64,000 nt of DNA, taken from Corynebacterium afermentans subsp. afermentans. GTDB taxonomy: Bacteria > Actinomycetota > Actinomycetes > Mycobacteriales > Mycobacteriaceae. A program made the translations under genes and the position numbers. The stretch lies in the NCBI RefSeq assembly GCF_030408355.1, contig NZ_CP046606.1:372001-436000 (forward strand), in the 5' to 3' direction. The notes under the pieces were generated by a model. That model ran no database searches. It saw only the letters and a program-made list of their open reading frames with translations, and had not been told where the DNA came from. Shown one piece after another: positions 3,672 through 60,521 of this stretch (the first letter of the stretch is position 1; each line of letters starts with the position of its first letter).

Positions 3672-4352
3672 GTGCATGACCCGACCCATATCCCACGTCT
3701 GATCGAGGCGCTGCAGCGCGCCTGGGAAGGACAGCCGGACCTCACGCTCGCCCAACTGATCGGGGTACTGGAGAACAGCGGCCTGGGCTGGGGCACAACA
3801 GACGAGGAAGCCGTCGAGTTGCTCACCGCGATGGAGCGCGAACATCCCTCGATTATCGACGCCACCTCCGGCTCCCACGCCATCACCACCGTCAACCCGC
3901 CCCATCTAGTCACAATCACGAACAGATATGTGGTGGTGCGAAACGACGCCGACCCCGAGCGCATGCCGGCGGTGTGGCGCATGGGCGGGATGCGCAAGGC
4001 GGGCCCCGGCCTACCGCTGGTTATCGCTGACGCTGAGGGGGTTGAGCACCGCCTGGGGATCGTGTCTTTGTTAACGCGGTTGGAGGGGGCACCGGAGGCG
4101 TCGATAAGCACCCCGCGAGCGGACGTGGGCAACAGGCGATGGCTAGTGCTTTTCGACGATGGTGCGCGGGCCGTGGTCGGGCAGCGCATCCGCATCTGGC
4201 GAATGGGAAGACGCAGCGTGGTGAGTGAACGTCTCGCCTGGAGCGACATTTTGCGCTGCGAGCCTGGCGCGGAGATGGAAATAGCCCCAGCGGGCGGCGG
4301 GAAGCCGCGCACGCTGGGGCTGGTCAAGCTCGTGCTGGAATTGGAGCGCTAG
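3672..4352 (+). CDS. Hypothetical protein, 226 aa
   Basis: I do not recognise this protein. It is a soluble, mixed alpha/beta sequence with no signal peptide, membrane segment or obvious catalytic motif. The N-terminal part (residues 1-60) looks helical, and the middle holds a run of short hydrophobic strands (LVTITNRYVVVRN). The GTG start at 3672 sits 7 nt after TAGGCT, which suggests a leaderless transcript. It is convergent with the Asp23 cluster; its stop codon overlaps the stop of that cluster's last gene by 4 bp (4349-4352, around a CTAG palindrome). Coding is supported by GC-rich third positions over its whole length. Confidence 0.75.
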   Translation: MHDPTHIPRLIEALQRAWEGQPDLTLAQLIGVLENSGLGWGTTDEEAVELLTAMEREHPSIIDATSGSHAITTVNPPHLVTITNRYVVVRNDADPERMPAVWRMGGMRKAGPGLPLVIADAEGVEHRLGIVSLLTRLEGAPEASISTPRADVGNRRWLVLFDDGARAVVGQRIRIWRMGRRSVVSERLAWSDILRCEPGAEMEIAPAGGGKPRTLGLVKLVLELER

Positions 4353-4909
4353 GCGGTAATCCGGTCCAGGTGGAGCTTCCACACCGTGTCGATTTCCATG
4401 GTGTGGCTTGCTTCGCGGAAATCCTGGTCCGCGCCTTCGATGACGCGTACGACGTCATCGAACGGGTACTCCGGGTTGGCGAAGACGGTAAACGTCGCGG
4501 TAGGGCGCTTGCCCACCATCGCCACCTTGGAGGAAGCGCGGCGGATCTCGCCTGCGTGCTCCAGGGAAGTGCAGGCCGCCTCAGACACACGCTGGACGTT
4601 GATAATGGTCTCGCCGTGCTCCGGGTCAGCCGGCAGGATGCCGCGGTTCGAAAACGCGCGGGACCGGATATTGGCCAGCAGGATCCACAGGCCCAGGATC
4701 GCTGAAATGACAGCGCCGATGATCAGGGCGGTGACGTAGAAGTCCTGGTAGCCCAGGTCGATCAGTCGGGTGCGGTCGACGAAATCGGCCGCGTCGACCA
4801 GGTACGGGATCTGCCAGTACTCGGCGATCGGGAAGAGGCCGGCGAGAATCAGCAGCAGGCCAAGCAGAAAAACCGCCAGGCGGTTAAAGAAGCTGAGCGT
4901 CTTAGTCAT
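4349..4909 (-). CDS. AmaP-like membrane protein of the Asp23 cluster, 186 aa
   Basis: This is a small membrane protein with two hydrophobic segments: residues about 8-30 (LAVFLLGLLLILAGLFPIAE) and about 60-82 (VTALIIGAVISAILGLWILL). A soluble C-terminal domain follows. The layout matches AmaP, the membrane anchor for Asp23/Gls24 proteins in Firmicutes. I infer that it tethers or partners the Asp23 proteins encoded upstream; sequence identity to AmaP is not obvious by eye. It is the last gene of the minus-strand cluster, overlaps the DUF6286-like gene by 4 bp (ATGA type), and its 3' end overlaps the convergent hypothetical gene by 4 bp. Confidence 0.7.
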   Translation of the reverse strand: MTKTLSFFNRLAVFLLGLLLILAGLFPIAEYWQIPYLVDAADFVDRTRLIDLGYQDFYVTALIIGAVISAILGLWILLANIRSRAFSNRGILPADPEHGETIINVQRVSEAACTSLEHAGEIRRASSKVAMVGKRPTATFTVFANPEYPFDDVVRVIEGADQDFREASHTMEIDTVWKLHLDRITA

Positions 4910-5571
4910 CGCGACACCTCCGGGGTCGTCTCGGCCGAAGCGGATCCGGCCGTCGGCTGAGGCGCGTTAGTGCGCTGCGCGGCGACCTGTTGCGCGGCTG
5001 GGCTGGGCAGCAACTTCACGGACACCGCCGGCGGCGTCTTGAGCACACGGAACTCGTCGTTCAGCGCACGAGTGATGCGTTCCTGCATCGCCGAGCCGGA
5101 GCCATCCTCGACCACCTGTACCTTCACGGACTTCCGGTTCGCCTTCGTGCTCACCTGCTCGCCGCCGAGATCGCCGCGGGTAGTGAACGTCGTCTTGCGG
5201 GCGATGTCCACCGGGCGGGTCCAAACGGAGGCGGGCGAGTTCACGCGCACGTGCCCGTGCGGGCGCGGTTTGAACGAGAAGAACAGGAGGATCAAACCTA
5301 CGAGCACAAGGAGGATGCCCACCACTACCGCGGTGACATCTGCTGCGAAGGAACCGAGGAAATCCCAGGTGCGGCCCAGCCAGGAATCCGACGGGGCTTC
5401 ATCGCCGTAGAAGTGGTACCACAGGTCGCGAGCAGCCACACCAGCCAGCGAGAGCAAAATCAGGCTGATCAGCACCGCAAACCAGCGCGATGCCGGGTTG
5501 CCCAGCGGCTCATCGCCCGGGTGCGGGCCGACAGCTGCGTTAGTGGGCGCCTTGTTAGCGGGAGCGGTCAT
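4906..5571 (-). CDS. DUF6286-like membrane protein of the Asp23 cluster
   Basis: This 221-residue protein has a polar N-terminus, two transmembrane helices (about residues 30-48 and 75-98) and a basic soluble domain of about 120 residues (HGHVRVNSPASVWTRPVDIA). It ends in an Ala/Pro/Thr-rich tail. The arrangement resembles DUF6286 proteins, which accompany Asp23 genes in actinobacteria. That match is from memory of the family, not a search. It overlaps the upstream Pro-rich Asp23 gene by 17 bp and the downstream gene by 4 bp, so translation of the three is probably coupled. The exact function is unknown; a cell-envelope role is inferred from context. Confidence 0.7.
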   Translation of the reverse strand: MTAPANKAPTNAAVGPHPGDEPLGNPASRWFAVLISLILLSLAGVAARDLWYHFYGDEAPSDSWLGRTWDFLGSFAADVTAVVVGILLVLVGLILLFFSFKPRPHGHVRVNSPASVWTRPVDIARKTTFTTRGDLGGEQVSTKANRKSVKVQVVEDGSGSAMQERITRALNDEFRVLKTPPAVSVKLLPSPAAQQVAAQRTNAPQPTAGSASAETTPEVSR

Positions 5572-6535
5572 AGTACTTCACCACCGGTTCAATCGTGATC
5601 TGCTTCAGCGGCTTCGGTGCTGGTGCCTTGGGCACAATCACCGGCCGCGGCGCGGGCGCGGACGAGAACGGGGCGCGCGGCGCCGGCTCCACCACGATGG
5701 GTTTGAGCGGCGGGCGGTTGACCGTGATCTCCTTCAGCGGTGCGCGGTTCGGCATAGGGACATCGCGGGGCTGTGCGAAACGCTTGATGTCCACAGGCTT
5801 GAGCGTCTGCAGCGGAGGCAGCTGCGGGTGACGGGGGATAACCCCGTTCGCCTGCGGCGCCCACGGGCGGATCGGCTCCGGCGGGAACGGCACGCGCGCT
5901 TCCGTCTGCGAGGTGTGGATGGCAGCGAGGCGCTGCGGCTCCGGTACCTCGGGGGAGAACGTTCGCACCGGCTCCGGGGCTGCAACGCTTGCCGCGTGCA
6001 CCGGATCCGGCTGGCCGGGGTGGTCCACCTCGATCGGGGCGGGGACAACGACGTCACGCATGTCGTCGACAAGCGAGCGCGCCTTGACGGGCGCGAGCTG
6101 CTGGAGCGGTTTCGTCGTGGGGTGCTCCACGTGGGTCGGGGAGACCTCGATGGGGGTCGGGATCACGAAAGCCTCGTGCTCCGCCACCTGGTCCCAGGTG
6201 ACGCGGCCGGTGTCGGGGAGAGTTTCCACATTGGCCACGGTGACCTTCACGCGGGAGACGTCAAGGCCCACCAGCGTGCGAATGTGCGCGATGATGGTCG
6301 CGCGCACTGCGTCGGTGATGGCAGCAACCGGGGCGGGGTAGGAGGTGGCAATTTCGGTGTCCACCGCCACTGTGCCCGTCGCCTGGTCCAACCGGGCGTT
6401 GATCCGCGGGAAGCTTCGTCCCGCGAGCCCGGCCAACTTTGCGTCGATAGTCCGGCAACCCGGAACCGCCGCAGCTGCCACCTCAGCGACACGCTCGATG
6501 GTGCGCTCACTGACGTGGTAGAAGGAATTATCCAT
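5555..6535 (-). CDS. Asp23/Gls24 family protein with long Pro-rich C-terminal tail
   Basis: The first 110 residues carry an Asp23/Gls24-type domain (VSERTIERVAEVAAAAVPGC, then GTVAVDTEIATSYPAPVAAI and a TLVGLDVSRVKVTV strand). The remaining roughly 210 residues are Pro-rich and of low complexity. The last 70 contain three copies of a PLKxI(T/V)(V/I) motif: PLKEITVNRP, PLKPIVVEPA and PLKQITIEPV. At 326 residues it is far longer than the usual 110-190 for this family. The tail may be a wall-spanning or scaffold-binding linker; this is inference. The start codon shares a base with the stop of the preceding 66-aa gene (TAATG), and the 3' end overlaps the DUF6286-like gene. Confidence 0.75.
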   Translation of the reverse strand: MDNSFYHVSERTIERVAEVAAAAVPGCRTIDAKLAGLAGRSFPRINARLDQATGTVAVDTEIATSYPAPVAAITDAVRATIIAHIRTLVGLDVSRVKVTVANVETLPDTGRVTWDQVAEHEAFVIPTPIEVSPTHVEHPTTKPLQQLAPVKARSLVDDMRDVVVPAPIEVDHPGQPDPVHAASVAAPEPVRTFSPEVPEPQRLAAIHTSQTEARVPFPPEPIRPWAPQANGVIPRHPQLPPLQTLKPVDIKRFAQPRDVPMPNRAPLKEITVNRPPLKPIVVEPAPRAPFSSAPAPRPVIVPKAPAPKPLKQITIEPVVKYYDRSR

Positions 6536-7080: not shown

Positions 7081-7083
7081 GGC

Positions 7084-7644: not shown

Positions 7645-8233
7645 GACGGTCCTTTCGTTCTGTAAAAACTGTGAATCCGCGCGTCCTTATTTACGAAGCG
7701 CACGGCCTGGAAATAAAGGGTACACACATATTTCAGGTAGAGCCGGGCTGAGAAGAAGGTGATATCAAGTTGAAATAATCCGGGCCTGGCCGAAGGTTCG
7801 TCGAGAAGCGGGCTTGTGCTTACCGCAACCTTGTGTTTTAATACCCGGGTTGCCTTGACATGGGCCGGAGCAAACCGGCCGGTGGCCAGGCAAACATGAC
7901 ACCTTCCAACCGGAAGAACCGGAGAAGGGCCATGGCAAATTCACAGCGGCAGTACGCAAGGGTCACGCGCCCTTCCGAGTCTGACACCCAGGCATGTGCT
8001 TATAGACGGGCACGCCTTGGCGGAAGCACTGAAACAGCATGAATTTGCTCGGTCACCTTCCGGACGTGTCATGACAGTCAGAAACGACACTGGCGTTGAG
8101 CCATGGGCCCAGCCCGGACAACGTTATAGAGAAACTAGAAGCTACAAACCCCACCGCTTCGCCCGTTTCTCACTCCGTTCGAAACGAGCGGGAGAGAGAA
8201 GGACGAACGTGGGGATGCGAGGAAGAGGTAAGC
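7645..8233 (+). other. Divergent regulatory region between Asp23 cluster and S10 operon
   Basis: This 589-bp stretch has no credible gene and must hold promoters for both directions. Visible elements are: CGTCGAGAAGC at 7799-7809 (one mismatch to the repeated word CGTCGATARGC); TTGTGC at 7814 and TAATAC at 7839, a weak promoter candidate with a 19-bp spacer; a GGCCGG/CCGGCC hairpin at 7863-7880; and a hairpin CGTTTC/GAAACG near 8164-8190, shortly before the rpsJ ribosome binding site. A leader this long before rpsJ could allow feedback control by a ribosomal protein, as L4 does in E. coli, but nothing here proves it. Confidence 0.45.
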
Positions 8234-11092: not shown

Positions 11093-11368
11093 ATGCCACG
11101 TAGCCTGAAGAAAGGCCCGTTCGTCGATGAGCACCTCCTCAACAAGGTGGACGCTCAGAACGAGGCTGGTACCAAGCAGGTCATTAAGACCTGGTCGCGC
11201 CGTTCGACCATTCTCCCCGATTTCATCGGTCACACCTTCGCCGTCCACGACGGCCGTAAGCACGTGCCGGTGTTCGTCGACGAGTCCATGGTCGGCCACA
11301 AGCTCGGCGAGTTTGCACCGACCAAGACCTTCAAGGGTCACGTCAAGGAACAGAAGGGACGTCGATAA
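11093..11368 (+). CDS. rpsS: 30S ribosomal protein S19
   Basis: S19 binds 16S rRNA together with S13 in the subunit head. The 91 residues begin [18 protein letters not shown] and include [22 protein letters not shown] and [16 protein letters not shown], all family hallmarks. It has a strong ribosome binding site (GAGGAGG). The stop region overlaps one copy of the repeated word CGTCGATAAGC (11360-11370). Confidence 0.98.
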
Positions 11369-11371
11369 GCA

Positions 11372-18994: not shown

Positions 18995-19861
18995 CTACGC
19001 CAGTTCGTGCAGGTACGGCGTGTCGGCGCCGGTGCGGGAGACAGTGATGGCGGCGGCGCGGGCGGCGAAGTCCAGGATCTCGCGCCACTCATCGGCGCCC
19101 AAGGCCAACAGCGCGGAACGGTCGAGGCCGCGGGCGTCGAACTGGTGCACCAGCGCGGCCATGATGGTGTCGCCGGCGCCGATGGTGTCCGCGACCTCCA
19201 CGGCGGGGGCCTGCACCTCCACGGAACCGAACGGTGCGCGGACGCGGATGCCGTCGCCGCCGAGGGTGGTCACCACAACGGGCACGTCGGAGGTGTCGCC
19301 GAGGAATTCGACTTCCTCGTCGGATAGCTTCAGCACCGTGACAGATTCCAAAAGCCCGCGCAGGAACAGGCGGTGCTTCTCGGAGGAAAACGCGGGCCGC
19401 AGGTTGGGGTCCAGGCACACGATCGCGCCGTTGTCGGCGCTGACGCGCGCGGCTTCGGCGTAGCGCAGCGAGCCGGGTTCCAGGGCCAGGGACAACGTGC
19501 CGAACACTGCGTAGCCGTCGGTCACCGGCACGGGTTCGGCGAGCCGGTCCGCGGTGCCGTTGACGTAGAAGGTGTAGGAGGCGGAGCCGTCGTCAAGCAA
19601 TGCGGTGACTGCAAGCGTGGTGGGTTCGCTGCCGCTGGGGCACAGCGAGAGGTCGACGCCAGCGTCGAGGAGCGATTGCCGCAGCGCCGCGCCGTATGCG
19701 TCGGAGGAGAGGCGCGACTGGAACGCCACTGAAGCCCCGAAGCGCCCCAGCGCGCGGGCCACGTTGAACGGGCCGCCGCCGAGCGCCGGGGTGAGCGGCG
19801 CGAGCGGGCCGGGGGCGGACGGCACGAGGTCGACCAGGGCTTCGCCGTACACGGTGATCAT
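18995..19861 (-). CDS. scrK: Fructokinase (PfkB family)
   Basis: This PfkB-family sugar kinase phosphorylates the free fructose produced by ScrB, most likely to fructose-6-phosphate. The 288 residues carry both family signatures: GGGPFNVARALGRFG near residue 28 and DTIGAGDTIMAAL near residue 230, where the Asp of GAGD is the catalytic base. The N-terminal GEALVDLVPS is typical of bacterial fructokinases. It is divergent from scrB with only 18 bp between the start codons and shares a symmetric -10 region with it. Sugar specificity is inferred from the sucrose gene context. Confidence 0.87.
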   Translation of the reverse strand: MITVYGEALVDLVPSAPGPLAPLTPALGGGPFNVARALGRFGASVAFQSRLSSDAYGAALRQSLLDAGVDLSLCPSGSEPTTLAVTALLDDGSASYTFYVNGTADRLAEPVPVTDGYAVFGTLSLALEPGSLRYAEAARVSADNGAIVCLDPNLRPAFSSEKHRLFLRGLLESVTVLKLSDEEVEFLGDTSDVPVVVTTLGGDGIRVRAPFGSVEVQAPAVEVADTIGAGDTIMAALVHQFDARGLDRSALLALGADEWREILDFAARAAAITVSRTGADTPYLHELA

Positions 19862-38400: not shown

Positions 38401-38422
38401 AAGCATCTAGCTTTTCGACGTC

Positions 38423-40751: not shown

Positions 40752-40782
40752 GCCTATCGACGAACCAAAGGACCACAACGCA

Positions 40783-46180: not shown

Positions 46181-47011
46181 ATGGACAACACGCTGCGCCT
46201 GCGCCTGGACATCGCCTACAACGGCACCGACTTCCACGGCTGGGCCCGCCAAAAGGGGGATCTGCGCACCGTCCAGCAGACCATTGAGGACGCGCTCTCA
46301 CTCGTCTTGCGAACTGACGTGGCGCTCACTGTCGCCGGCCGCACCGACGCGGGCGTGCACGCCGCCGGGCAGGTCGCGCACACGGACATTCCGGCGGAGT
46401 CGCTCAACCAACGATCGATTGACGGGGATCCGGGGCGGCTGGTGCGTCGATTAGCAAAATTGCTCCCTGAAGACGTCCGCGTGTTCGGCGTCGCGGAAGC
46501 CCCCGCGGGCTTCGACGCCCGCTTTTCCGCCCTGACCCGCACCTACTGCTACCGGGTGACCACCCATCCCGCAGGTGCCATGCCCACCCGCGCGAGAGAC
46601 ACCGCCGTCTGGCCGAAACCCGTGGACTTGGGCGCGGTGCAAGCCTGCGCCGACGCACTGGTCGGCCTGAACAACTTCGCCGCGTTTTGCCGCCCGAAGA
46701 AGCACGGCACCACCATCCGCGAGGTGCATAGCTTCACCTGGCGCGAAGTCGAGCCGCACCTGTTTGAGGCGCGAATCACCGCCGACGCGTTCTGCTGGAA
46801 CATGGTCCGCGCACTCGTGGCCACCTGCCTCACCGTCGGCGAAGGCAGGCGCGCACCCCAGTGGCCGGAGGAGCTTTTGCTTCTCGACGCCCGCTCGCCC
46901 GACGTCCCCCTCGCCCCCGCCCGCGGACTGACATTGGTGGGCGTGGAATACCCGGAAGATAGCGAACTGGCGGCGCGAGCCGAAGCGACCAGAGCCACCC
47001 GCGAGATGTAG
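46181..47011 (+). CDS. truA: tRNA pseudouridine(38-40) synthase
   Basis: TruA isomerises uridines at positions 38-40 of tRNA anticodon arms. The ATG at 46181 gives MDNTLRLRLDIAYNGTDFHG and 276 residues. The catalytic Asp56 lies in VAGRTDAGVHAAGQ; other family blocks are RTYCYRV and FCWNMVRALVATCLTVGEG. An earlier in-frame ATG at 46127 lies inside the terminator and is rejected. The gene sits between rplQ and the ESX locus, as in mycobacteria. Confidence 0.96.
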   Translation: MDNTLRLRLDIAYNGTDFHGWARQKGDLRTVQQTIEDALSLVLRTDVALTVAGRTDAGVHAAGQVAHTDIPAESLNQRSIDGDPGRLVRRLAKLLPEDVRVFGVAEAPAGFDARFSALTRTYCYRVTTHPAGAMPTRARDTAVWPKPVDLGAVQACADALVGLNNFAAFCRPKKHGTTIREVHSFTWREVEPHLFEARITADAFCWNMVRALVATCLTVGEGRRAPQWPEELLLLDARSPDVPLAPARGLTLVGVEYPEDSELAARAEATRATREM

Positions 47012-47044: not shown

Positions 47045-49162
47045 ATGACCACAGTCGCAGCCGCGTGGTTCGCCGTGGTGTTTTTCACCCTCCCCGGCTT
47101 TGTGTTTTCCTGGGTCGCCGGCATGAAAGCCCCGGCCGCAGGCGCGGCCGCGCTGCCTGTGACCTTCGGCCTGTTCGGCGTGACTTCCTGGTTCTGGGGG
47201 CTGACCAGTGCGCCCTTTAACCTGTGGACGTTCGGCGTGAGCATGGTCGTGGCCCTTCTAGCGGCCGCGGCATGGCGGTACCTGTTCGTGCGCCGGGCCC
47301 GCCGCGGCGGGGCAGTGAGCTGGCGCCGAGCGCTGTTTCCCGGCGACGTGCGAAAGGGCAGCATCGCCGATCCGTACTGGGTGCTGCCCGCCGCCGGCGT
47401 TGGCGTGGGGGCGTTCATGGCGGCGTCGGACAGGCTGCGCTGGCTCGAGCGCATGCCCAACGGTGTTTTCAATATCGTCCAGGGGTGGGACGTGCAGTGG
47501 CACGCCAACCTGGTGCGCTTCATCATGGACGACGGCATCGCCTCGGCCACCCGGATGGGCGAGCTGCAAAACGTGGAGTCGCAGCTGAAGCTGTTCTACC
47601 CGTCCGCCTACCACGCAGGTATTGCCCTGTTCGGGGAAACGGCGGGCCTGGACCCCATCCCGGCGCTGAACATCGCCTCGGCCGTGCTGCCCGCGCTGGC
47701 GCTGCCGGTCACGCTCGCGTGCCTGGCGTTCGCGTTTTTGCGCTCCACCGGAGTCACGGCGCAGATCGCGGCGGCGCTCGCGGCCATCATGGGGTACGCC
47801 GCCCCGCAGCTGTTCTGGATCCCGGACTACGTGGGCATGTGGCCATACCTACTCGCCGTAGCACTCACCGGCACCGTGACGTGGCTGCTTATCACCGTGC
47901 CGCGCCGGCGCGCCAGCGCCCTGCCCGCCGCACTCGCGTTCGTGGCTGTGCTGTGCGTGCACCCGTCCGCAGTCACCATCGTGGTGCTCGCAGTCGGGTT
48001 CTACTGGCTGACCTCCACCTTGATCTCCCCGGAGCGCACGCGGCTGACGGACACGCTGTGGATCGCGCTGCCCGCCGTCGCCGGCGTCGCCATGTTCGTC
48101 CCGCAGGTGCTCGCCGGCTCCGCCCAAGCGGGCGAGGTGGCCTCTTGGCGCCCCGAGGAAACCCTCGGCGTCGGCGGGGCGTGGGGCACAGCGGCGCGGA
48201 TGGAAACGCGCCACGTGTTGCAATTCTTCCCGGCGTACGACGCCACCGTGCTGCTGTGGCTCGCCGCCGCTGGCGCCGTGGTGTGCCTGCTGTGGCGCCG
48301 CCAGATCTGGCCGGTGCTCTTCTACGCGGTGTCTTTGGCCATTACCGCCAACGCCTTAGTTTCGTTCGACAACACCCTCGGCCACCTGCTCGACTACGTG
48401 GGCAACCTGCATTACAGCACCGGCCACCGCCTGATCATGCCGGTGGTCATGGCGGTCACCGCGTCGGCCGCTATCGCCGTGGCGGCGGGCATTCGCGTGG
48501 TCACGGCAGCGCCCGTCGCAAAGCGGTATGCGAAAGGCGAGCGCACCTCCGCGATCGCGAGCATCGTCGTCGCCTGCATCGTCGCCTCCGCGGCGGTCCC
48601 GATGATCCGCGAGCACACCGACCACGGCGCCGAGAAAACCTACGCCGCCGCCCGCGTCATCGACCGCATGGTCGACGCCGACGACCTCGAAGCCTTCGAC
48701 TGGCTAGCCACCCAACCCGCCGCCTGGGAGGGCCTGACCGCCGGCGACCCCGCCGACGGCTACTCCTGGATGTACGCCTACAACGGCGTGCCCACGTTGA
48801 ACCGCCACTACCTGTGGCCCAACGGCGGCCGCGGCACCAACGGCGACATCATGTACTGGAACGCCGACTTCATCGGCGAAGGCGAGCACAACCTCGTCGA
48901 CGAGACGGTGGAGAACTTGAACGTGAAGTTCTTCCTGCTCAGCCCCGGCGCGTTCTGGCACTACCAGTACCCGCCGTACGAGATGCTGCGCGACTTCTGG
49001 GTTTCAGAAGGCGTCACACCCGTCTACCGCAAGGGCTCCACGGCGATCTTCGCGGTGAACAGCCAGTTCAGTAAGGCGGAGCTGGAGGACATGGTCGCAG
49101 ACGGGCAGGAGAACGGCTCCGACGAGCTGTTTGCGCTCGCGGAGGCCGGTACTGCGCAGTAA
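47045..49162 (+). CDS. Large polytopic membrane protein (DUF6541-like), 705 aa
   Basis: A 705-residue membrane protein. The first about 530 residues hold around 12 hydrophobic helices (FAVVFFTLPGFVFSWVAGMK at the start). A soluble domain of about 170 residues follows, containing WLATQPAAWEGL, a YNGVPTLNRHYLWPNG block and NVKFFLLSPG. The plan of many helices plus an extracytoplasmic C-terminal domain resembles GT-C glycosyltransferases and DUF6541 proteins. A role in cell-wall glycan or lipid glycosylation is plausible but unproven. GGGAGG lies upstream of the ATG. It separates truA from eccB, 40 bp before the latter. Confidence 0.8.
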   Translation: MTTVAAAWFAVVFFTLPGFVFSWVAGMKAPAAGAAALPVTFGLFGVTSWFWGLTSAPFNLWTFGVSMVVALLAAAAWRYLFVRRARRGGAVSWRRALFPGDVRKGSIADPYWVLPAAGVGVGAFMAASDRLRWLERMPNGVFNIVQGWDVQWHANLVRFIMDDGIASATRMGELQNVESQLKLFYPSAYHAGIALFGETAGLDPIPALNIASAVLPALALPVTLACLAFAFLRSTGVTAQIAAALAAIMGYAAPQLFWIPDYVGMWPYLLAVALTGTVTWLLITVPRRRASALPAALAFVAVLCVHPSAVTIVVLAVGFYWLTSTLISPERTRLTDTLWIALPAVAGVAMFVPQVLAGSAQAGEVASWRPEETLGVGGAWGTAARMETRHVLQFFPAYDATVLLWLAAAGAVVCLLWRRQIWPVLFYAVSLAITANALVSFDNTLGHLLDYVGNLHYSTGHRLIMPVVMAVTASAAIAVAAGIRVVTAAPVAKRYAKGERTSAIASIVVACIVASAAVPMIREHTDHGAEKTYAAARVIDRMVDADDLEAFDWLATQPAAWEGLTAGDPADGYSWMYAYNGVPTLNRHYLWPNGGRGTNGDIMYWNADFIGEGEHNLVDETVENLNVKFFLLSPGAFWHYQYPPYEMLRDFWVSEGVTPVYRKGSTAIFAVNSQFSKAELEDMVADGQENGSDELFALAEAGTAQ

Positions 49163-49202: not shown

Positions 49203-50417
49203 ATGGCGAAGCTTTTGCCAACCACGCGTGCCCAGGTGTCGGGGCACAAGTTCATGCGCCGACGTATGGAACACGGCCTGATCTTCGGCGATATCCGCAT
49301 GATCCACGATCCGCTGGCCGCGCGGCGCCGTGCGACCATTTTCGGCACCGCGGCGGTGGTGATGATCGCGGGCGTGATGGGGCTGTTTGCGTGGATGCGT
49401 CCGAACGCTGATCCGGGGGATGCGCCGATTGTGCGCGCCACGGACGGCACACTGTACGTGCGCGTGGGGGCGGCGGCGCACCCGGTGACGAACTTGGCGT
49501 CGGCGCGCTTGATCGCCGGCCAGGCGGCTGAGCCGGCGCGCATCGGCGACGAGAAACTCGCCGAGTTGCCGCGCGGTGTGCCGGTGGGCATCGTCGCAGC
49601 ACCAGGCATGTTCGCGCCCGAAGGCACGCGTTTGGCCAGCTGGTCGGTGTGCGGCGCGGACACGATCACGGTGGTTGCGGGTGAGGCTCCGGAGCCATTG
49701 CCTATCGACGCCGCAGTCCTCGCCGCCGATGCCACCCGCGAGTGGGTCGTCACCGCCCAGGGGCGGCGCTTGCTGCCGGAGGCGAACACCCCGCAGGGCC
49801 GCGTGATCCGCCGAGCGCTGGGAATCACCCCGGACACGCCCCGGTGGTCGCCGCCGACGCAGGTCATCTCGGCGTTGCAGGAGTTGCCGCCGGCGGCGCT
49901 GCCGGATCCGCTGCCGCAGATCATCGACGCGGACGATACTTCCTGGGCGCTTTTAGACGGCCGCATCCAACCGATCACCGCCACCCAGCGCACCATCCTG
50001 CTGGATGCGGGAGCGAAGGCCGCCGTCGCGAGCCGTGAGAGCCTGGCGTCTTACCCGGACGCCGAGGAGGAACTGCGCCTGCCGGGGGAGCGGCCGCGGT
50101 GGATGGAGCCGCACCTAGCGTGCGTGGACCAGGGCCGCGGCGGGGCAACCGTAGACGAGGTGCCGGAGGGCATTGAGCTTTCGGGAACGTCCGTGGCCAC
50201 CCATTTCGCGGGGTTGGATGGCGGCTCCGTCGGGGTGGATTCGGGCCACGGGTTCCACGTGGTCTCCGCCAACGGGCTGCGCCACCGCGCACCGGACGCG
50301 GAAACCCTGGCCACAGTGGGCGCGGCGCACGTGGAGGACGTGCCGTGGGAGATCGTCGCCTTGCTGCCGGAGGGCGCGGAGCTTACGCGCGACTCGGCGC
50401 TTCAGGCGACCTATTAG
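49203..50417 (+). CDS. eccB: Type VII secretion membrane protein EccB
   Basis: EccB is a core subunit of the ESX membrane complex with one transmembrane helix and a periplasmic domain. The ATG at 49203 follows GGGGGAGGGG and gives MAKLLPTTRAQVSGHKFMRR, the family N-terminus. The helix is at about residues 42-62 (ATIFGTAAVVMIAGVMGLFA). The periplasmic part contains the conserved cysteine pair (WSVCGAD and LACVDQG). At 404 residues it is shorter than the roughly 470-500 of mycobacterial EccB. It is convergent with mycP, with only 7 bp between the stops. Confidence 0.92.
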   Translation: MAKLLPTTRAQVSGHKFMRRRMEHGLIFGDIRMIHDPLAARRRATIFGTAAVVMIAGVMGLFAWMRPNADPGDAPIVRATDGTLYVRVGAAAHPVTNLASARLIAGQAAEPARIGDEKLAELPRGVPVGIVAAPGMFAPEGTRLASWSVCGADTITVVAGEAPEPLPIDAAVLAADATREWVVTAQGRRLLPEANTPQGRVIRRALGITPDTPRWSPPTQVISALQELPPAALPDPLPQIIDADDTSWALLDGRIQPITATQRTILLDAGAKAAVASRESLASYPDAEEELRLPGERPRWMEPHLACVDQGRGGATVDEVPEGIELSGTSVATHFAGLDGGSVGVDSGHGFHVVSANGLRHRAPDAETLATVGAAHVEDVPWEIVALLPEGAELTRDSALQATY

Positions 50418-50424: not shown

Positions 50425-51498
50425 TTACCGTCGGCCGGCGCGCAGCGCGACCACCAGGGCCGCCATGGCGAGCGCCGCCCCGGCGAGCAATCCGAGCCTG
50501 CCCACGGCCGCGTTGGGCTGCTTATCGACGGCGCGCACCTGCGCCGTCGGGCGGTCCGCCAGCTCGTGCGGTGTTAGTTGGGTCAGCGCGGCAAGCGGAT
50601 CGATCGCGCCGCCGCCGGGTTGAGCGGAGGCGTCGATCAGCGAGCGCACATGCTCCGGAGTAATGCCGGGGTAGCGCGACTGCAACAGCGCCACGGTGCC
50701 GCTGACCACCGGGGTGGCGAAGCTCGTGCCAGCGTAGGGGCGAACCCCGTCTTTTTCCAGCGTGCCCTCTGCCCACCCGCCCGGCGCGAGCGCGGCCGGG
50801 ACATGCCCCGGCGCAGACAGCGCGGCGGGCAGGGAGTAGTCGGCGAGGGTGTGGTCGTTTGCGCGCGCGGCCACCGCGAGCACGGTGGGGAAGAGGGCGG
50901 GGAAAACCTCGAAGCCGGGTTCGCAGTCGGGCCCCGCGTTGCCGGCGGCGGCAACGACCACCGCGCCTTGCGCCTCGGCGCGGTGGAGGGCGCCGGTGAT
51001 GCCGGAGGTGTCGATGCGCGCCGCGAATCCGGGTTCCAGGCAGGACACGACGGAAATGTTGAGCACGCTCGCGCCCTCGTCGAGGGCGTTGTGGATCGCG
51101 TCGGTGAGCGTTTGTAGGTTACCGGCGTCAACGTCGCGGTAGTGCGCCGAGGTCTGCCGGACCGAGATGATCTCCGCGTCCGGGGCGATGCCGAGGGTGC
51201 GCCCGGCGATCACCCCGGCGACGGCGGTGCCGTGGTTGTCGCAGTCGTGCAGCGCGTCCGCGGCGACGAAGTCGCGGCCGCCGCGCAAGTGGGCGATCTC
51301 GGGGTGCGGCGCGACCCCGGTGTCGATCACCGCCACGCGCACCCCGGCGCCGGTGGCGAACTCCCGCAGGTTTTCGGTCGCGGGGGAAGCAGCAGGCTTA
51401 TCGACGAGCGCCGGCACCGCGCACGCCACATCCTGGGCGGAAGCAGACACCGGTGTGAGGCTCAGCGCGAACAGAGCGATGGCGGTGAGTTTGCGCAT
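50425..51498 (-). CDS. mycP: Mycosin, subtilisin-like protease of the ESX system
   Basis: MycP is a membrane-anchored S8 serine protease that stabilises the ESX complex. The 357 residues begin with a signal peptide (LTAIALFALSLTPVSASAQ) and end with a membrane anchor (LGLLAGAALAMAALVVALRA). The catalytic triad is Asp59 (VIDTGVAPHP), His89 (DNHGTAVAGV) and Ser259 (GTSFATPVVSG), with the oxyanion Asn187 in AAAGNAGPDC. The gene is separated by one base from the eccD stop, so both form an operon. All active-site residues are intact. Confidence 0.95.
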   Translation of the reverse strand: MRKLTAIALFALSLTPVSASAQDVACAVPALVDKPAASPATENLREFATGAGVRVAVIDTGVAPHPEIAHLRGGRDFVAADALHDCDNHGTAVAGVIAGRTLGIAPDAEIISVRQTSAHYRDVDAGNLQTLTDAIHNALDEGASVLNISVVSCLEPGFAARIDTSGITGALHRAEAQGAVVVAAAGNAGPDCEPGFEVFPALFPTVLAVAARANDHTLADYSLPAALSAPGHVPAALAPGGWAEGTLEKDGVRPYAGTSFATPVVSGTVALLQSRYPGITPEHVRSLIDASAQPGGGAIDPLAALTQLTPHELADRPTAQVRAVDKQPNAAVGRLGLLAGAALAMAALVVALRAGRR

Positions 51499-51499: not shown

Positions 51500-52801
51500 T
51501 TAGAGCCCCCGGATCAGGCCGAACAACCCGGTTAAGTGCACCGCCAGCGGGATCACGGCGATGGTGGCGGCGATCTCGGCGCGCTCGAACCACACGATGG
51601 TGGTCGGCTCCACATCCGGCACGCGCGGCGCCCACGCGACCGTCGCCGCGGCAGCGATGGCAGCGAGCGCGGCGACGGCGATGCACGCCGGGTGCCCGGT
51701 CTTCGCGGCGGCGGCCGCGGCGGCGATGACGGCGGAAAGGGCCACCGCGGTCAGGCAGGCCCGCGGCACAGCCCAGTGCTGGCGCGAGGCGTAGACCACC
51801 AGCGCCGCCGCCACCCCCAGGCAGAATGCGAACGTCCACGCCCCGCCGGCCCGGCCCAGCCACCAAAGCGCCGGCACGCAGCACGCGGCGATCGCCGCCG
51901 AGATGGCGGAGGCGATGATGGCAGCGGCGGCGCTGCGGGCGTCCACGTCGCGTTGGTAGTCGTCGGAACGGTCGAACTCTTCGCCGGCGGTGGGCACCCG
52001 CGGCACCACCAACCCCGCCGCGCGGGTGGCCGCGCCGGGCGTGGCCACCACCCCGAGCACCCCCGTCAGCACCGTCAGCGCGGGCGGGGCGAGCGGGCCC
52101 GGCAGCCACACGCCGGCCGCCCCGGCGCCGCCAAGCACGCAGACCGCGGCCGTGAACGCCACCTGCGCCGCCCCGGCCAACCCCAGCGCGACGCCGATGC
52201 CGACGGCCACTGCCGCCGTGAGCAGCGCCGCCAGCGCCCCGAGCCCAAGCGAGGGCGCATCGCCGCCACCGGCAACCCACACGCCCGCGGCGAGCCCCGC
52301 CAGCAGCGGCACGGGAGCAAACGCCGGGCGCGACCTGCCAATCGACGCCACCACCAACGCCAACAGCGCCACCGCACCCAACGCGACCGGCCACGGCGCA
52401 AACACCCGCGCAAGCAGGAGCACCGCCGTCAGACCCGCGAACGTCGCCGCCGCGTCCAACCCGCGAATCTGCCGTGCCGACTCGGCTGCCCCGGCCAGAG
52501 CGTCGGCCGCGTCGCGCACCACCGGCGGGGGCGTGGGTTCTTGGGGGTGGAGGGAGACGGTGGCGCCGTCGTGAAGCTTGAGCGCGTACAGCGGCGTGTG
52601 CATATCCAGCACTACTCCGCCCGCGGTGGTGGCTTGCCACGGGCGGTGCACCTCCGGCAGCTCCACCAGGCGCGCGAGTTCCGGCAGCACCTCCGAAAGC
52701 GTCGACGACGTCGGCAGCGTGACGTCGATGTCGCGGTGGAACGCGACAACCGAAATGCGGACAGTAACGCGCACGATGTGGTGCGCAGACGTTGCAACCA
52801 A
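51500..52801 (-). CDS. eccD: Type VII secretion channel protein EccD
   Basis: EccD is the polytopic core of the ESX pore. The N-terminal 95 residues form a YukD/ubiquitin-like domain (RVTVRISVVAFHRDIDVTLP). About 11 transmembrane segments follow, rich in Ala/Val/Leu, to residue 433. The end is TVAWAPRVPDVEPTTIVWFE and a last helix. The start is unclear: the longest frame begins with TTG at 52801, and a GTG at 52774 would give VRVTVRI directly; neither has a ribosome binding site. It is divergent from eccC. Confidence 0.9.
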   Translation of the reverse strand: MVATSAHHIVRVTVRISVVAFHRDIDVTLPTSSTLSEVLPELARLVELPEVHRPWQATTAGGVVLDMHTPLYALKLHDGATVSLHPQEPTPPPVVRDAADALAGAAESARQIRGLDAAATFAGLTAVLLLARVFAPWPVALGAVALLALVVASIGRSRPAFAPVPLLAGLAAGVWVAGGGDAPSLGLGALAALLTAAVAVGIGVALGLAGAAQVAFTAAVCVLGGAGAAGVWLPGPLAPPALTVLTGVLGVVATPGAATRAAGLVVPRVPTAGEEFDRSDDYQRDVDARSAAAAIIASAISAAIAACCVPALWWLGRAGGAWTFAFCLGVAAALVVYASRQHWAVPRACLTAVALSAVIAAAAAAAKTGHPACIAVAALAAIAAAATVAWAPRVPDVEPTTIVWFERAEIAATIAVIPLAVHLTGLFGLIRGL

Positions 52802-52930: not shown

Positions 52931-55900
52931 ATGCTTGGCCTCGACTACGACCAAGTGCTCGCACCAACAACCGGCGCACCAGACGCCGCGATCGACGCCG
53001 CGCCGCCGCCGACCGGCACCTTGCGCGCCGAGCCCGTGCCCGCGGCGCAAAAGCCGCAGTCGCCGCCGGTGATAAAGATCCTGCTGCCGGTGGTGATGGT
53101 GGTGGCAGTCGGCGCGGTGATGGTGCTCATGGCCACCTCCGGCCGCGCTGTGAGCCCGATGATGCTGATCTTTCCGCTGATGATGCTCTTCGGGCTCGTC
53201 GGCATGTTCAACCCGCAGGAAAAGCAGGGCGACATCGACGAGACCCGCCGCGTCTACCTGCGCCACCTGGACGCGCTGGCGAAGAAAGCCCGCGCGAACG
53301 CCGCGACGCAGCGCACGCACGCCACCGCGCTGCACCCCGCGCCGGGCGAGCTGGTGGCCGCGGTGCCGGTGGAGCGCATCTGGGAGCGTGCAGGCGCCCC
53401 GACGGTGCGGCTGGGCACCGGTGCGGGCGCGCTGTGCACCCCGGTGGACGTGGACGACCCCGGCAGCCCCGAGGATTTGGACCCGGTGTGCGCGGTGAGC
53501 CTGCGCCGCGCCGTAGCGGCGGTGAGCACGGTGCCGGGCATGCCGATGCTGGTCCAGCTCGACGCGTTCGACGCGATCACGCTCGCCGGGCCGGCGGCGG
53601 CCGATGTGGCGCGCTCGATCGTGTGCCAGCTGGCGTTTTTCTACGGCCCGGAAAAGGTCCGCATAGACGCGCCGTTCGCCTGGGCGAAGTGGCTGCCGCA
53701 CGCGCGCAGCGACGGGGCGTTTCGCATCTCGCTTATCGACGGCCACGCCTCTCCCGCACCCACCGACTCCGACCTGGTGGTGACCATCCACGACGACCCG
53801 GACTTCTTCGCCGACCCGGACGCGTTCCACCTGGTCTGCACCGACGTGCTGGAAGCTGTCACGGCGCAGGGGGTGGAGCAGCTGGGCGTGCCGGATAGGT
53901 TCACGGATGCGGAGGCGGAGTTCGTCGCTAGGCACTTAGGCTTTTATCGCCGCCCCGACGGGGCGGTGGAGGCTGGCGGGGATTTTCTGTCCATGCTGGG
54001 TGTGCCGGACGTCGATGCGCTGGATGCGCACACGATGTGGCCGGGGGTGCGCAACAAGCTGACCGTGCCCATCGGCGCGACTCCCGACGGCCATCCGGTG
54101 TACCTGGATTTGAAGGAGGCGGCGCTGGGCGGGATGGGCCCGCACGGGCTGTGCATCGGGGCGACGGGCTCCGGTAAGTCGGAGCTGCTGCGGACCCTGG
54201 TGGTGGCGCTGGCGGCGACGCACTCGCCGGACGAGCTGAACTTTGTACTCGTGGACTTCAAAGGCGGCGCGACGTTTTTGGGCTGTGAGTCGCTGCCGCA
54301 CACCGCCGCGGTGATCACCAACTTGGAGGACGAGGCGGTGCTGGTGGAGCGCATGTTCGACGCCATTTCCGGCGAGATGCACCGCCGCCAGGAACTGCTG
54401 CGGGCCGCCGGCAATTTCGCCAACATCACGGACTACACCAAGGCGGGCAACACGCTGCCGTCGCTGGTCATCGTGGTCGACGAGTTCACCGAGCTGCTCA
54501 CCCAGCACCCACACTTTGCGGACCTGTTCGTGGCGGTGGGCAGGCTCGGCCGTTCGCTGGGCGTGCACCTTTTGCTCGCCTCGCAGCGGCTGGAGGAGGG
54601 CAAGTTGCGCGGGCTGGATTCGCACCTGTCCTACCGCATCGGCCTGAAGACGTTCTCCGCCGGCGAGTCCCGCCAAGTCCTCGGCGTGCCGGACGCCTAC
54701 GAGCTGCCCGGCGAGCCCGGGTCCGGCTACCTCAAAGCCGGCATGGAGCTGACCCGCTTCCGCGCGGCCTACGTCTCCGGCCCGCTGACGCGCACGGTGG
54801 TTGAGCACCCCGGCGAGCAGCACGTGCGGCTGTTCACCGGCAACGAGATCGAACTGGCGCCCACCGCCTACGTTGAGGAGGACCGCTCCACCACGCTGCT
54901 GGACGCGGTGGTGGCTAAGGCCCGCGAGGTCGCCGATGCCCGCGGCATGCACGCGCACCAGGTGTGGCTGCCGCCGCTGCCGGAGCGCATCCCGCTGTCG
55001 CAGGCGCACGGGGCGCTCGGGCTTATCGACGAACCCTTCAAGCAGCGCCAGACCCCCTTCCACTTGGACCTGGATACCGCCGGCGGGCACGTCGCCATCG
55101 CGGGCGGGCCGCAGACGGGCAAAACGATGGCGGTGCGGAGCATCGTGGCCACGCACATGCGCGAGGGGTTGGCCGTCTACGTCATCGGCGACGTACCGGA
55201 GCTCGAGGCGCTGCCGCATGTCGCCGGCGTGGCCAGCATGAAAGACGCCGAGCGCACCCGCCGCATCGTCGACGAAGTCACCGGGTTCCTCGACCACCCG
55301 CGGCCTGTCATGCTGGTTGTCGACGGCTGGCACGCCCTCGACGAGGACCTGCGCGAACCGCTCGCCCGCATCGCCTCCGAAGGCCCCGACGCCGGCATCC
55401 ACCTCGTGGTGACCACCCAGCGCTGGAGCGCGATCCGCCCGAACGTGCGCGACCTCATCGGCACCCGCCTCGAGCTGCGGCTGACAGAACCGATGGACTC
55501 GTTGATCAACCGCAAACACCAAGAGAAGCTGCCCGCCACGCCCGGCCGCGGCCTGACCCCGGACGGCAAAACCGTCCAGCTCGTCTTCACCAGCGGCGAG
55601 GACATCGCCCACCTCGCGGCCACCGCCGACCAGGCGCCGGTGGAGAAGTTGCGGGTGCTGCCGGAGGCCGTGGCTACGCACTCGCTTCTCGACGGCCAAA
55701 GGATCCCCCTCGGCATCGGCGGCCCCGCCCTCGAACCCGTGTACTCCTCCGGGCACATCCTCGTCATCGGCGCTGGCGGCTGCGGGAAATCCACCTTCAT
55801 CGCCAGCACAATCGCCGCGGTGGAGCACATGGGCCGCGAGGCCGCCCGGATGGTGGTGCTCGACCCGAAGCGCGCGCACCTCGGCCGCGCCGACGAGGAC

Positions 55901-56353: not shown

Positions 56354-57249
56354 CCGAGCTGCGCATCACCGCCACCGACGCATCCACCGTGATCACCGGT
56401 GCAGCCAACATCCACCGCTTCGACGCGCCCACCAGCCGCGAAATCGCCGGCACCGTCCGCAGCGTGCTCGGCCCCGACCCGCACGGCGCGCCGGTGCACA
56501 TCGCAGCCGACCCACAACGCCTCAGCGAGCTCACACACGCACTCGCCGACTACGACATCGACCTGACCACCGAGCCCCTCCAACCCGTCGCGCCCACACC
56601 CGACGACACCCCGGAACCCTTCCACCGACCACCACCGCCCGAGCAGGAATCGCGCTCCGGCGTGTGGATCATCGCCGCCGTCGTCGCCGCAGTCGCCCTC
56701 GCCTGCGCCGCAGTGATTTGGGGTCTGACTAGCGGGAAAGCGCAGTCGTCGGGAGAGGCGGAACCGCCACCGTCGCAGCCGCCGGAGACGCAATCAACTC
56801 CAGTGTCGTCTCCTGCGCAGGAGGAGGAAGAGGCGGAGCAGTCGTCGATAAGCATTGAGCGCGACGGCTTAACCGTCCAACTCCCCGCAGGCTTCACCCT
56901 CGAAGCCGACGACGACATGTGGCGCGCCACAGGAAGCGACCCCAACTTCCGCCTGCAGATCGCCGTCGAGCACCTCTACCAGCTGCCAGCGCGCACGATG
57001 GCCGACCAACTTCTTGCCGACATCGAAACCGACCCGGAGGTCGAACTCGTCGACACAGACGGCATCTCCGTGACCTACCTGGAGCGCGCCGGCGACGGCT
57101 CGCAATCGCTGTGGAAAACCTGGCCCAACGGGACCGTGCAGCTGTTCGTGGGCTGCCACACGCGCACCGAACCCACCGTCGTGCAACGCGCCACCTGCCG
57201 CATGGCCATGGAATCCGCTGAATATAAGGGGGCTGACGTGGGTCCATAA
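56350..57249 (+). CDS. Type VII secretion-associated protein (Rv3446c-like)
   Basis: A 299-residue protein with a short N-terminal domain of about 85 residues (ITATDASTVITGAANIHRF), a Pro-rich stretch, one membrane helix at about residues 100-125 (WIIAAVVAAVALACAAVIWG), a second low-complexity stretch and a C-terminal extracytoplasmic domain with a cysteine pair (VGCHTRTEP; ATCRMAM). Position and layout match the Rv3446c family in mycobacterial ESX-4. Its biochemical role is unknown. The ATG overlaps the eccC stop, so it is translated with the ATPase. The gene carries a copy of the repeated word CGTCGATAAGC (56843-56853). Confidence 0.85.
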   Translation: MTELRITATDASTVITGAANIHRFDAPTSREIAGTVRSVLGPDPHGAPVHIAADPQRLSELTHALADYDIDLTTEPLQPVAPTPDDTPEPFHRPPPPEQESRSGVWIIAAVVAAVALACAAVIWGLTSGKAQSSGEAEPPPSQPPETQSTPVSSPAQEEEEAEQSSISIERDGLTVQLPAGFTLEADDDMWRATGSDPNFRLQIAVEHLYQLPARTMADQLLADIETDPEVELVDTDGISVTYLERAGDGSQSLWKTWPNGTVQLFVGCHTRTEPTVVQRATCRMAMESAEYKGADVGP

Positions 57250-59247: not shown

Positions 59248-59269
59248 TCGCTTCTACGCGTGCGTTGTA

Positions 59270-59298
59270 CGCCGTCGTCCGTTTGGGCGGCGGCGTTT
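59270..59298 (+). terminator. Terminator after rpsI
   Basis: CGCCGTCGTCC pairs with GGGCGGCGGCG (two G-U pairs) around GTTT, followed by TTT. It lies 22 bp after the rpsI stop and 8 bp before the convergent HNH gene. Confidence 0.75.
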
Positions 59299-59305
59299 CG
59301 CGTTG

Positions 59306-60379: not shown

Positions 60380-60387
60380 GGCCACAG

Positions 60388-60393
60388 ACCCTA
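60388..60393 (-). promoter_or_regulatory. -10 element of a probable leaderless HNH gene promoter
   Basis: On the minus strand this is TAGGGT, ending 8 nt before the ATG at 60379, with no ribosome binding site. Confidence 0.4.
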
Positions 60394-60521
60394 AACCCAA
60401 CGCAACCCCACCCCGGCCCGCCCTGTGGAATTCGCAACATCACCCCTGTGGATAACTCGCAAAACGCCAGGTTAAATTGCGCGGAAGTTGGGGTGGCGGA
60501 GCGATCGTCGATAGGCAAGTG

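What the first reader, a model, noticed from the sequence alone, without database searches (positions are those of the whole stretch)
4099..60516. Highly iterated 11-bp word CGTCGATARGC
Reading both strands I find 14 exact copies of CGTCGATA(A/G)GC. Plus strand: 4099, 11360, 28566, 35392, 56843, 60506. Minus strand: 20806, 25697, 40752, 49700, 50520, 51396, 53731, 55021. Chance predicts about 0.06 in 64 kb. Eight more have one change at position 7 (CGTCGAGAAGC at 7799, 26981, 31983, 46879, 55684; CGTCGAAAAGC at 4148, 22405, 38410). Copies occur in genes and in the leaders of rpsJ (variant), rplN, rpsH, map and glmM, often within GGTTCGTCGATAAGC. The word is not palindromic and both orientations occur. 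It could be a protein-binding site for chromosome organisation, a methylation or restriction target, or an uptake-like word.
Basis: seen in the sequence. Interest (0 to 1): 0.78.

Follow-up and report, generated by a model that had tools for sequence, protein, structure and literature searches.

The report
Self-marking DNA word in Corynebacterium
An 11-letter DNA word seen in this window is one form of a motif repeated hundreds to thousands of times in most Corynebacterium chromosomes examined but scarce in the plasmids, phages and islands looked at, much like the tags by which some bacteria recognise DNA of their own kind for uptake.

Summary
All 14 CGTCGATARGC coordinates are exact. The whole chromosome holds 439 copies against 1 for the reversed word. 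It is one form of a looser motif, CRTCG-NN-AAGC: 1225 copies here against 108 control. Of 201 Corynebacterium genomes 152 are enriched at least 3.7-fold, 7 weakly, 42 not. In 140 genomes of 30 other genera the exact word has at most 12 copies.

It is kept at the DNA level, inside genes largely through synonymous sites. Clade dialects exist: CGTCG or CATCG. A G-rich stretch of about 30 nt precedes it. Neither replication strand is preferred: 120 against 118. Plasmids, phages and two islands are poor in it.

Best reading, about 50%: a DNA-uptake-type self-recognition word as in Neisseriaceae and Pasteurellaceae, to my knowledge the first in an actinobacterium. Against it: comEC, tadA and comEA occur in word-bearing and word-less genomes alike, and no reader is known. 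A Chi-like recombination word is the main rival.

The parts
4099..4109 (+). exact word CGTCGATAAGC
4148..4158 (-). variant CGTCGAAAAGC
6064..6074 (+). variant CGTCGACAAGC
7799..7809 (+). variant CGTCGAGAAGC; imperfect inverted repeat around it
11360..11370 (+). exact word CGTCGATAAGC directly before the L22 gene; its TAA would be the stop codon of the gene before (rpsS by recalled gene order)
19588..19598 (+). variant CGTCGTCAAGC
20806..20816 (-). exact word CGTCGATAAGC
22405..22415 (-). variant CGTCGAAAAGC
25697..25707 (-). exact word CGTCGATAGGC
26981..26991 (+). variant CGTCGAGAAGC
27326..27336 (+). variant CGTCGACAGGC
28566..28576 (+). exact word CGTCGATAAGC, upstream of the L14 gene
29944..29954 (-). 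variant CGTCGCAAAGC
31983..31993 (+). variant CGTCGAGAAGC
33238..33248 (-). variant CGTCGACAAGC
35392..35402 (+). exact word CGTCGATAAGC, upstream of the S8 gene
38410..38420 (-). variant CGTCGAAAAGC
40332..40342 (-). variant CGTCGGTAGGC
40752..40762 (-). exact word CGTCGATAGGC, at the start of the longest frame of the methionine aminopeptidase (M24) gene
41039..41049 (+). variant CGTCGTCAGGC
46879..46889 (-). variant CGTCGAGAAGC
48514..48524 (+). variant CGTCGCAAAGC
49700..49710 (-). exact word CGTCGATAGGC
50520..50530 (-). exact word CGTCGATAAGC; not found at this place in the two distant relatives aligned
51396..51406 (-). exact word CGTCGATAAGC; point-mutated in the two nearest relatives
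52567..52577 (+). variant CGTCGTGAAGC
53731..53741 (-). exact word CGTCGATAAGC; same in three of the four nearest relatives aligned, CGTCGAGAAGC in the fourth
53923..53933 (+). variant CGTCGCTAGGC
55021..55031 (-). exact word CGTCGATAAGC
55684..55694 (-). variant CGTCGAGAAGC; same in the four nearest relatives while the flank reads CCTTTGG or CCGGAGG
56843..56853 (+). exact word CGTCGATAAGC
60506..60516 (+). exact word CGTCGATAGGC, 18 nt before the glmM ATG; same in all five relatives aligned there
60740..60750 (+). variant CGTCGAAAGGC inside glmM
62232..62242 (-). variant CGTCGCTAAGC
62579..62589 (-). variant CGTCGCAAAGC
62933..62943 (-). variant CGTCGCAAGGC

Best explanation
The word is a genus-wide, clade-tuned self-recognition word of the DNA-uptake-sequence type. 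Proposed working (inferred): a surface or import component of a Tad-pilus/ComEA/ComEC-type uptake route prefers DNA that carries CRTCG-NN-AAGC with its G-rich 5' flank; fragments with the word are taken up and recombined more often, so point mutations that improve a match spread by molecular drive until resident core DNA holds about one copy per 2 kb, while newly arrived plasmid, phage and island DNA has few. Shown here: the excess, the lack of strand preference, the synonymous-site constraint, the flank, the dialects, background-level genomes, scarcity in the mobile DNA examined, and point differences at aligned sites of near relatives. Not shown: that Corynebacterium takes up DNA at all, that uptake prefers the word, and which protein reads it.
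For: Copy number and spread: 439 exact copies; 1225 CRTCGNNAAGC against 108 control; 152 of 201 genus genomes enriched at least 3.7-fold; at most 12 exact copies in 140 genomes of 30 other genera. DNA-level constraint: CTT is 7.7% of Leu codons but 127 of 188 (67.6%) in the word frame, and 15 of 89 (16.9%) when only the preceding base differs; synonymous shuffles. No replication polarity: 120/118, 124/108 and 95/90 in two further genomes. Self versus mobile DNA: 0.513 per kb in this chromosome's sample against 13 sites in 221 kb of six plasmids (0.059 per kb, control 4) and 1 in 87 kb of two phages; in G149 the two poorest of 20 stretches (1 and 0 sites, mean 11.6) are a restriction/DISARM-like island and an IS cluster. 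Dialects that cluster in the tree, as described for DUS (PMC3630211, passages read). Substitutions in the word at aligned sites of the nearest relatives. comEC, comEA and tad genes are present in this genome; in the actinobacterium Micrococcus luteus tad genes are needed for transformation (PMC4322843, passages).
Against: comEC (200 of 201), tadA (196 of 201) and comEA (200 of 201) are near universal in the genus, so word-less genomes have not visibly lost this machinery. No report of natural transformation in a Corynebacterium was seen in the listings of my paper searches, some of them capped (5 of 5, 10 of 10, 20 of 602 and 12 of 126 papers listed). A 30-nt G-rich flank on one strand is not a known trait of DUS (recalled); it suggests single-strand reading. 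Site positions within genes show no bias to gene ends (34/50/36/39/32 by fifths), unlike the Pasteurellaceae (PMC2346458 abstract). The central dinucleotide differences between species may partly follow base composition. No reader protein was identified.
Confidence: 0.5

Rival explanations
1. A Chi-like recombination word: the AdnAB (or another) helicase-nuclease reads the strand 5'-G-rich-CRTCGNNAAGC-3' as it resects DNA ends, stops degrading and hands the G-rich 3' tail to RecA, so self DNA is repaired and word-poor phage and plasmid DNA is degraded.
For: PDDEXK_1 nuclease domains, as in AdnA/AdnB (recalled), are found in 201 of 201 genus genomes. The G-rich stretch lies 5' of the word, where a Chi-type reaction would leave RecA-coated DNA (recalled from RecBCD work). 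Scarcity in phages and plasmids fits too.
Against: No strand preference in three genomes: 120/118, 124/108, 95/90, whereas known Chi words favour the leading strand (recalled). The word has 8-9 fixed bases, more than most known Chi words (5-8, recalled). The word is at background in 42 of 201 genomes although the nuclease domain is always there.
Confidence: 0.22
2. A binding site of an unknown asymmetric chromosome-organising or replication protein.
For: About one site per 2 kb in the sampled chromosome with near-random spacing (CV 0.90); scarcity in mobile DNA could reflect its recent arrival.
Against: Not palindromic, not oriented to the replichores; known organisers read palindromes or polar words (recalled). 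At background in 42 of 201 genomes of one genus, and its dialect shifts, which is odd for a core chromosome function.
Confidence: 0.13
3. A mobile or repeat-borne element (REP- or MITE-like) that inserts copies.
For: Hundreds of dispersed copies; some sites lie in imperfect hairpins (7799, 35392, 38410). Small insertions lie beside some aligned sites (55021 in L021 and L022; 56843 in L082 and L024) and several alignments to distant relatives have gaps around sites.
Against: In the nearest relatives (82-93% DNA identity) the word itself differs by substitutions at the aligned sites and never appears or vanishes as a unit. 191 of 238 sampled sites lie in my predicted genes. Apart from the word and its G-rich flank no longer shared unit was seen.
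Confidence: 0.04
4. A by-product of protein sequence, codon usage or a mutational quirk.
For: 127 of 238 sites sit in one antisense frame reading Leu-x-Asp.
Against: Synonymous-codon shuffles give 31 against 192 observed; the rare Leu codon CTT reaches 67.6% only in word context; intergenic and sense sites carry the same flank.
Confidence: 0.02

Closest known systems
DNA uptake sequence (DUS) of Neisseriaceae
   Same: Non-palindromic 10-12 bp word, thousands of copies, dialects with a conserved core congruent with phylogeny, related genomes without a word (PMC3630211, passages).
   Different: Different sequence and phylum; here a G-rich 5' flank of about 30 nt and a free central dinucleotide; no ComP-like receptor known; transformation not shown.
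Uptake signal sequence (USS) of Pasteurellaceae
   Same: Word with an extended flank (flank of USS recalled), copies every few kb or less on both strands, one orientation favoured within reading frames (PMC2346458 abstract; here 135 antisense against 56 sense).
   Different: USS flanks are AT-rich (recalled); no gene-end bias here.
Chi words of RecBCD/AddAB
   Same: Over-represented, asymmetric, self versus foreign DNA, G-rich surroundings (recalled).
   Different: No replication-strand bias; longer word; dialects and background-level genomes within one genus while PDDEXK_1 nuclease domains persist.
HIP1 of cyanobacteria
   Same: Highly iterated word that is low in some genomes (PMC4390886, search listing only).
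   Different: HIP1 is a palindrome linked to methyltransferases; this word is not palindromic.
KOPS / polar chromosome words
   Same: Short asymmetric chromosomal words.
   Different: KOPS are strongly oriented towards the terminus (recalled); this word is not.

Membership tests
DNA uptake sequence (DUS/USS) | Short word strongly over-represented genome-wide | tested here: met
DNA uptake sequence (DUS/USS) | Both orientations, no replication polarity | tested here: met
   120/118, 124/108, 95/90
DNA uptake sequence (DUS/USS) | Dialects that follow phylogeny | tested here: met
   CATCG against CGTCG groups, seen by eye on a one-gene tree; the central dinucleotide may partly reflect base composition
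DNA uptake sequence (DUS/USS) | Preferential uptake or transformation of word-bearing DNA | not testable with these tools
   needs an experiment; none seen in the listings
DNA uptake sequence (DUS/USS) | Species is naturally competent / has uptake genes | tested here: inconclusive
   comEC, comEA, tadA present in nearly all genomes, word-bearing or not; competence itself unknown
DNA uptake sequence (DUS/USS) | Known reader (such as ComP) | not tested
   no candidate beyond the Tad/ComEA/ComEC loci was looked at, and none for covariation with dialect
Chi | Leading-strand bias | tested here: not met
Chi | Modulates a RecBCD/AddAB/AdnAB enzyme | not testable with these tools
   only the PDDEXK_1 domain was searched, 201 of 201 genomes
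KOPS/AIMS | Orientation towards the terminus | tested here: not met
REP/MITE mobile repeat | Insertion of a unit at new sites | tested here: not met
   substitutions within the word at aligned sites of the nearest relatives; small indels lie beside two of these sites but do not carry the word in or out
Restriction-modification target | Cognate methylation of the word | not testable with these tools
   no methylation data; the large excess is not what a restriction target is expected to give

The most novel reading that the evidence does not exclude
Corynebacterium, whose mycolic outer membrane makes it a diderm of another lineage, has independently evolved a DNA-uptake word system with dialects. 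Its mark is a strand-specific composite of about 45 nt (a G-rich stretch of about 30 nt followed by CRTCG-NN-AAGC), read at least partly as single-stranded DNA during import or RecA loading, so that kin DNA is preferentially recombined and plasmid and phage DNA is not.
Probability: 0.4. Interest if true: 0.93.

Novelty: new variant of a known kind. Interest (0 to 1): 0.83.

Why it matters
Uptake words are known to me only from Neisseriaceae and Pasteurellaceae (recalled; PMC3630211 calls these two families the most suitable model organisms, passage). A genus-wide, dialect-forming self-word in an actinobacterial genus of commensals, industrial strains and pathogens would imply hidden natural transformation or another kin-biased recombination route, give a handle on gene flow between Corynebacterium species, and make testable whether a mycomembrane needs sequence-specific DNA capture as a Gram-negative outer membrane does. 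Even if it proves Chi-like, it would be the first such word I know of for an AdnAB-type system and would bear on self versus non-self handling of DNA ends. It may also help to flag recently acquired DNA in these genomes.

Tried and rejected
Rejected: mobile repeat, codon or protein artefact, polar words such as KOPS and, largely, Chi. Competence genes as discriminators gave nothing: ComEC, TadA and ComEA are near universal. T2SSF seemed scarcer in word-less genomes: under two matches in 21 of 42, 3 of 7 weakly enriched and 19 of 152 enriched genomes (my reading, tallied); TadA was then found in all but 5 of the 201, for example in G071, which had no T2SSF match and whose tadA lies at a contig end, so I do not rest on T2SSF. 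De novo word searches in ten low-count genomes (39 stretches of 20 kb): G144 and G048 carry other dialects; G147, G128 and G015 show an excess of GGTGGCGTC, but so, less strongly, does the word-bearing G000 (32 against 10 reversed in 464 kb); G148, G163, G066, G107 and G039 gave no convincing word of this kind. Literature: the 11-mer or its complement in print gave 5 papers, none about Corynebacterium by title and abstract start; in the passages a motif survey of prokaryotic genomes reports CRISPR-derived pairs for three Corynebacterium genomes and no such word. The two poor G149 stretches were chosen after seeing the counts (lowest 2 of 20). In the tree the L082 row is unreliable (its stretch is not a multiple of three). 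My gene prediction is home-made and takes longest frames, so some leader sites count as genic.
Full report
Observation. All 14 reported CGTCGATARGC sites are present at the stated coordinates and strands, and CGTCGATAAGC is the commonest 11-mer of the window. One CGTCGAGAAGC (21402+) was missed. The window is part of a single-contig chromosome of 2,375,453 bp (window = 372001-436000), which holds 237 forward and 202 reverse copies, against 1 and 0 for the reversed word. The nearest named relatives found are Corynebacterium sp. MSK008 and C. haemomassiliense.

The real motif. In a 464-kb sample (window plus 20 stretches) the positions CGTCG and the final GC are rigid, while the middle is loose: the seventh base may be anything and the ninth is A, G or C. 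Downstream there is a preference for RA, and for a GC a few bases on. Upstream lies a G-rich stretch: G is 0.49-0.60 of bases at -20 to -10 in the main antisense, the two main sense and the intergenic classes alike. The dialect-wide pattern CRTCGNNAAGC has 1225 copies here against 108 for the reversed pattern, 238 of them in the sample, or 0.513 per kb (control 25).

Not a codon or protein effect. In the sample 127 of 238 sites lie antisense in one frame that reads Leu-x-Asp, 64 lie in other frames of predicted genes, 43 between genes and 4 on edges (home-made gene prediction). In that frame the Leu codon is CTT, which is 7.7% of Leu codons overall but 127 of 188 (67.6%) when the neighbouring bases complete the word, and 15 of 89 (16.9%) when only the preceding base spoils it. 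Thirty synonymous shuffles of the predicted genes give 31.3 (sd 3.8) against 192 real sites for the pattern (counted on extracted genes, so edge cases differ by one), and 3.4 against 78 for the 11-mer.

Spread and dialects. Of 201 Corynebacterium genomes (drawn evenly from a larger set), exact-word counts run from 0 to 789, in general similar on both strands (237/202 here, 393/396 in G176; among the most uneven well-populated ones are 59/33 in G022 and 45/28 in G001). In 140 genomes of 30 other genera of the family the count never exceeds 12. For CRTCGNNAAGC 152 of 201 genomes are at 3.7-fold or more over control (134 of them at 8-fold or more), 7 at 2.2-3.1-fold and 42 at 1.8-fold or less. 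G111 has CATCG in all twelve commonest forms (top 11-mer CATCGACAAGC, 41 against 0.83 expected), and G149 has CGTCGATAAGC 80 times against 0.9. In a GlmM tree of 66 ingroup and 3 outgroup rows the forms cluster: CATCGGCAAGC in the C. macginleyi/KPL1814 group, CGTCGGCAAGC in the C. pseudodiphtheriticum group, CGTCGAGAAGC around C. pollutisoli, CGTCGATAAGC in many others (few sites per 20-kb locus, read by eye). The central dinucleotide may in part follow base composition; the G-to-A change in CGTCG does not look like that. The G-rich flank is present in both dialects: 0.47 G against 0.23 C at -20 to -10 for 405 CGTCG sites in the loci outside the six closest, and 0.45 against 0.25 for 54 CATCG sites; it reaches to about -30.

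Turnover. Of 12 sites in the 46-64 kb part of the window compared with eight named relatives, 10 had an aligned counterpart in at least one. In the nearest relatives the word differs by substitutions: 51396 reads CGTCGCAAAGC and CGTCGATACAC in L021 and L022, while 60506 is intact in all five relatives aligned there. Small insertions lie beside the word at 55021 (L021, L022) and 56843 (L082, L024), and several alignments to the distant L085, L027 and L025 are gapped around sites, but in the relatives of 82-93% identity the word itself did not come or go as a unit.

No polarity. Leading/lagging counts with ends set by GC skew are 120/118 in this genome, 124/108 in G149 and 95/90 in G111. Spacing is close to random (CV 0.90).

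Self versus mobile DNA. Six Corynebacterium plasmids hold 13 sites in 221 kb (control 4; the highest is pTET3 with 5 in 28 kb, control 2) and two C. glutamicum phages 1 site in 87 kb (control 0), against 519 in 1262 kb of the 65 chromosomal loci L021-L085 (control 35) and 12 in 21 kb of the C. gallinarum locus. The plasmids and phages differ in host and base composition, so this is a coarse test. Within G149 the two poorest of 20 stretches have 1 and 0 sites (mean 11.6) and lower G+C (0.533 and 0.562, genome sample 0.605). Their genes include a helicase / MrfA-Zn-binding / C5-methylase cluster resembling DISARM (label recalled) and a run of Mutator, IS3-like, IS21 and ISL3-type transposases (10 proteins of each examined). 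The richest stretch (21 sites) carries housekeeping genes such as a class II tRNA synthetase, a NusA-like protein and malate:quinone oxidoreductase. These stretches were picked after the counts were seen. G111 also has poor stretches (2-5 sites against a mean of 9) that I did not annotate.

Machinery. This genome has comEC and comEA side by side, and a tad locus at about C1:232761-237027 with TadA and T2SSF confirmed by search and the small pilin-like frames read from sequence (the other names recalled). Across the 201 genomes ComEC is found in 200, TadA in 196 and ComEA in 200, so they cannot explain which genomes have the word. PDDEXK_1 nuclease domains are in 201 of 201, so an AdnAB-type reader is not excluded either. 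31 of 42 word-less genomes share the weakest TadA matches against 3 of the other 159, which suggests one old clade without the word. In part of that group another string, GGTGGCGTC with a G-rich left and, in G015, an A-rich right side, is in excess and overlaps the left half of our element. G000 itself has a threefold excess of it too (32 against 10), so this may be a far dialect, a shared left half, or something else.

Interpretation. A non-palindromic word without strand preference, dense in resident DNA, poor in new DNA, tuned by clade, changing by point mutation and written largely into synonymous sites matches DNA uptake sequences better than anything else I know (PMC3630211 passages; PMC1939737 outline and abstract). 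The step from pattern to uptake is an inference. The strand-specific G-rich flank is not a trait of uptake words that I know and may mean that the element is read as a single strand; this keeps a Chi-like role alive despite the lack of polarity. I put uptake at about 0.5, Chi-like at 0.22, another binder at 0.13, and most of the rest on something not listed.

Prior knowledge. Searches of the held library for the 11-mer (5 of 5 listed) and for Corynebacterium or Actinobacteria with uptake sequence, competence, chi or over-represented words (5 of 5, 20 of 70, 10 of 10, 20 of 602, 20 of 22, 15 of 34, 12 of 20 and 12 of 126 listed) showed no paper that, by title, abstract start or the passages read, describes this word. 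The library lacks most subscription papers and several lists were capped, so absence from print is not established. The lack of RecBCD in Corynebacterium species is recalled; the paper on it (Nakamura 2003) was seen only as a citation in PMC1193525.

Noticed in passing
G000 sample (window and L001-L020), listed: A second repeated 12-mer, AACTAGCAGATC: 15 copies in 464 kb (13 in 400 kb against 0.01 expected); 10 of the 15 have GCTAGTT, the start of an inverted copy, within the 30 nt shown upstream. Looks like an unrelated hairpin repeat or terminator family.
   Followed up: partly
L137-L140 (G015), L113-L116 (G128), L105-L108 (G147), L076 (C. falsenii): Genomes without CRTCGNNAAGC show an excess of GGTGGCGTC(G/C): G015 15 against 3 reversed, G128 21 against 4, G147 16 against 5 per 80 kb (G000 32 against 10 per 464 kb); in G015 with G-rich left and A-rich right flank. 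Possible far dialect of the same element.
   Followed up: partly
L167 (G149:C1:1560001-1580000): Low-G+C island with large helicases, a MrfA-type Zn-binding protein and a C5 methylase, resembling a DISARM defence island (label recalled).
   Followed up: partly
L170 (G149:C1:1920001-1940000): Dense cluster of different transposases, with a leucine-rich-repeat (BspA-type) protein gene among them.
   Followed up: no
comEC of G001, G112, G114 and G194; tadA of G084: The ComEC match is in two pieces in three word-bearing genomes and holds a TGA in G194; TadA of G084 holds a TAA. Could be broken genes or assembly errors.
   Followed up: no
window 53731 and 55684 (- strand), upstream flank: The block just upstream differs as a unit between relatives: CCTTTGG, CCGGAGG or other, several bases at once, as if alternative good flanks are exchanged.
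   Followed up: no
L082:10001-11318 (C. wankanglinii): The glmM stretch has a length not divisible by three and gave a wild branch in the tree: frameshift or sequencing error.
   Followed up: no
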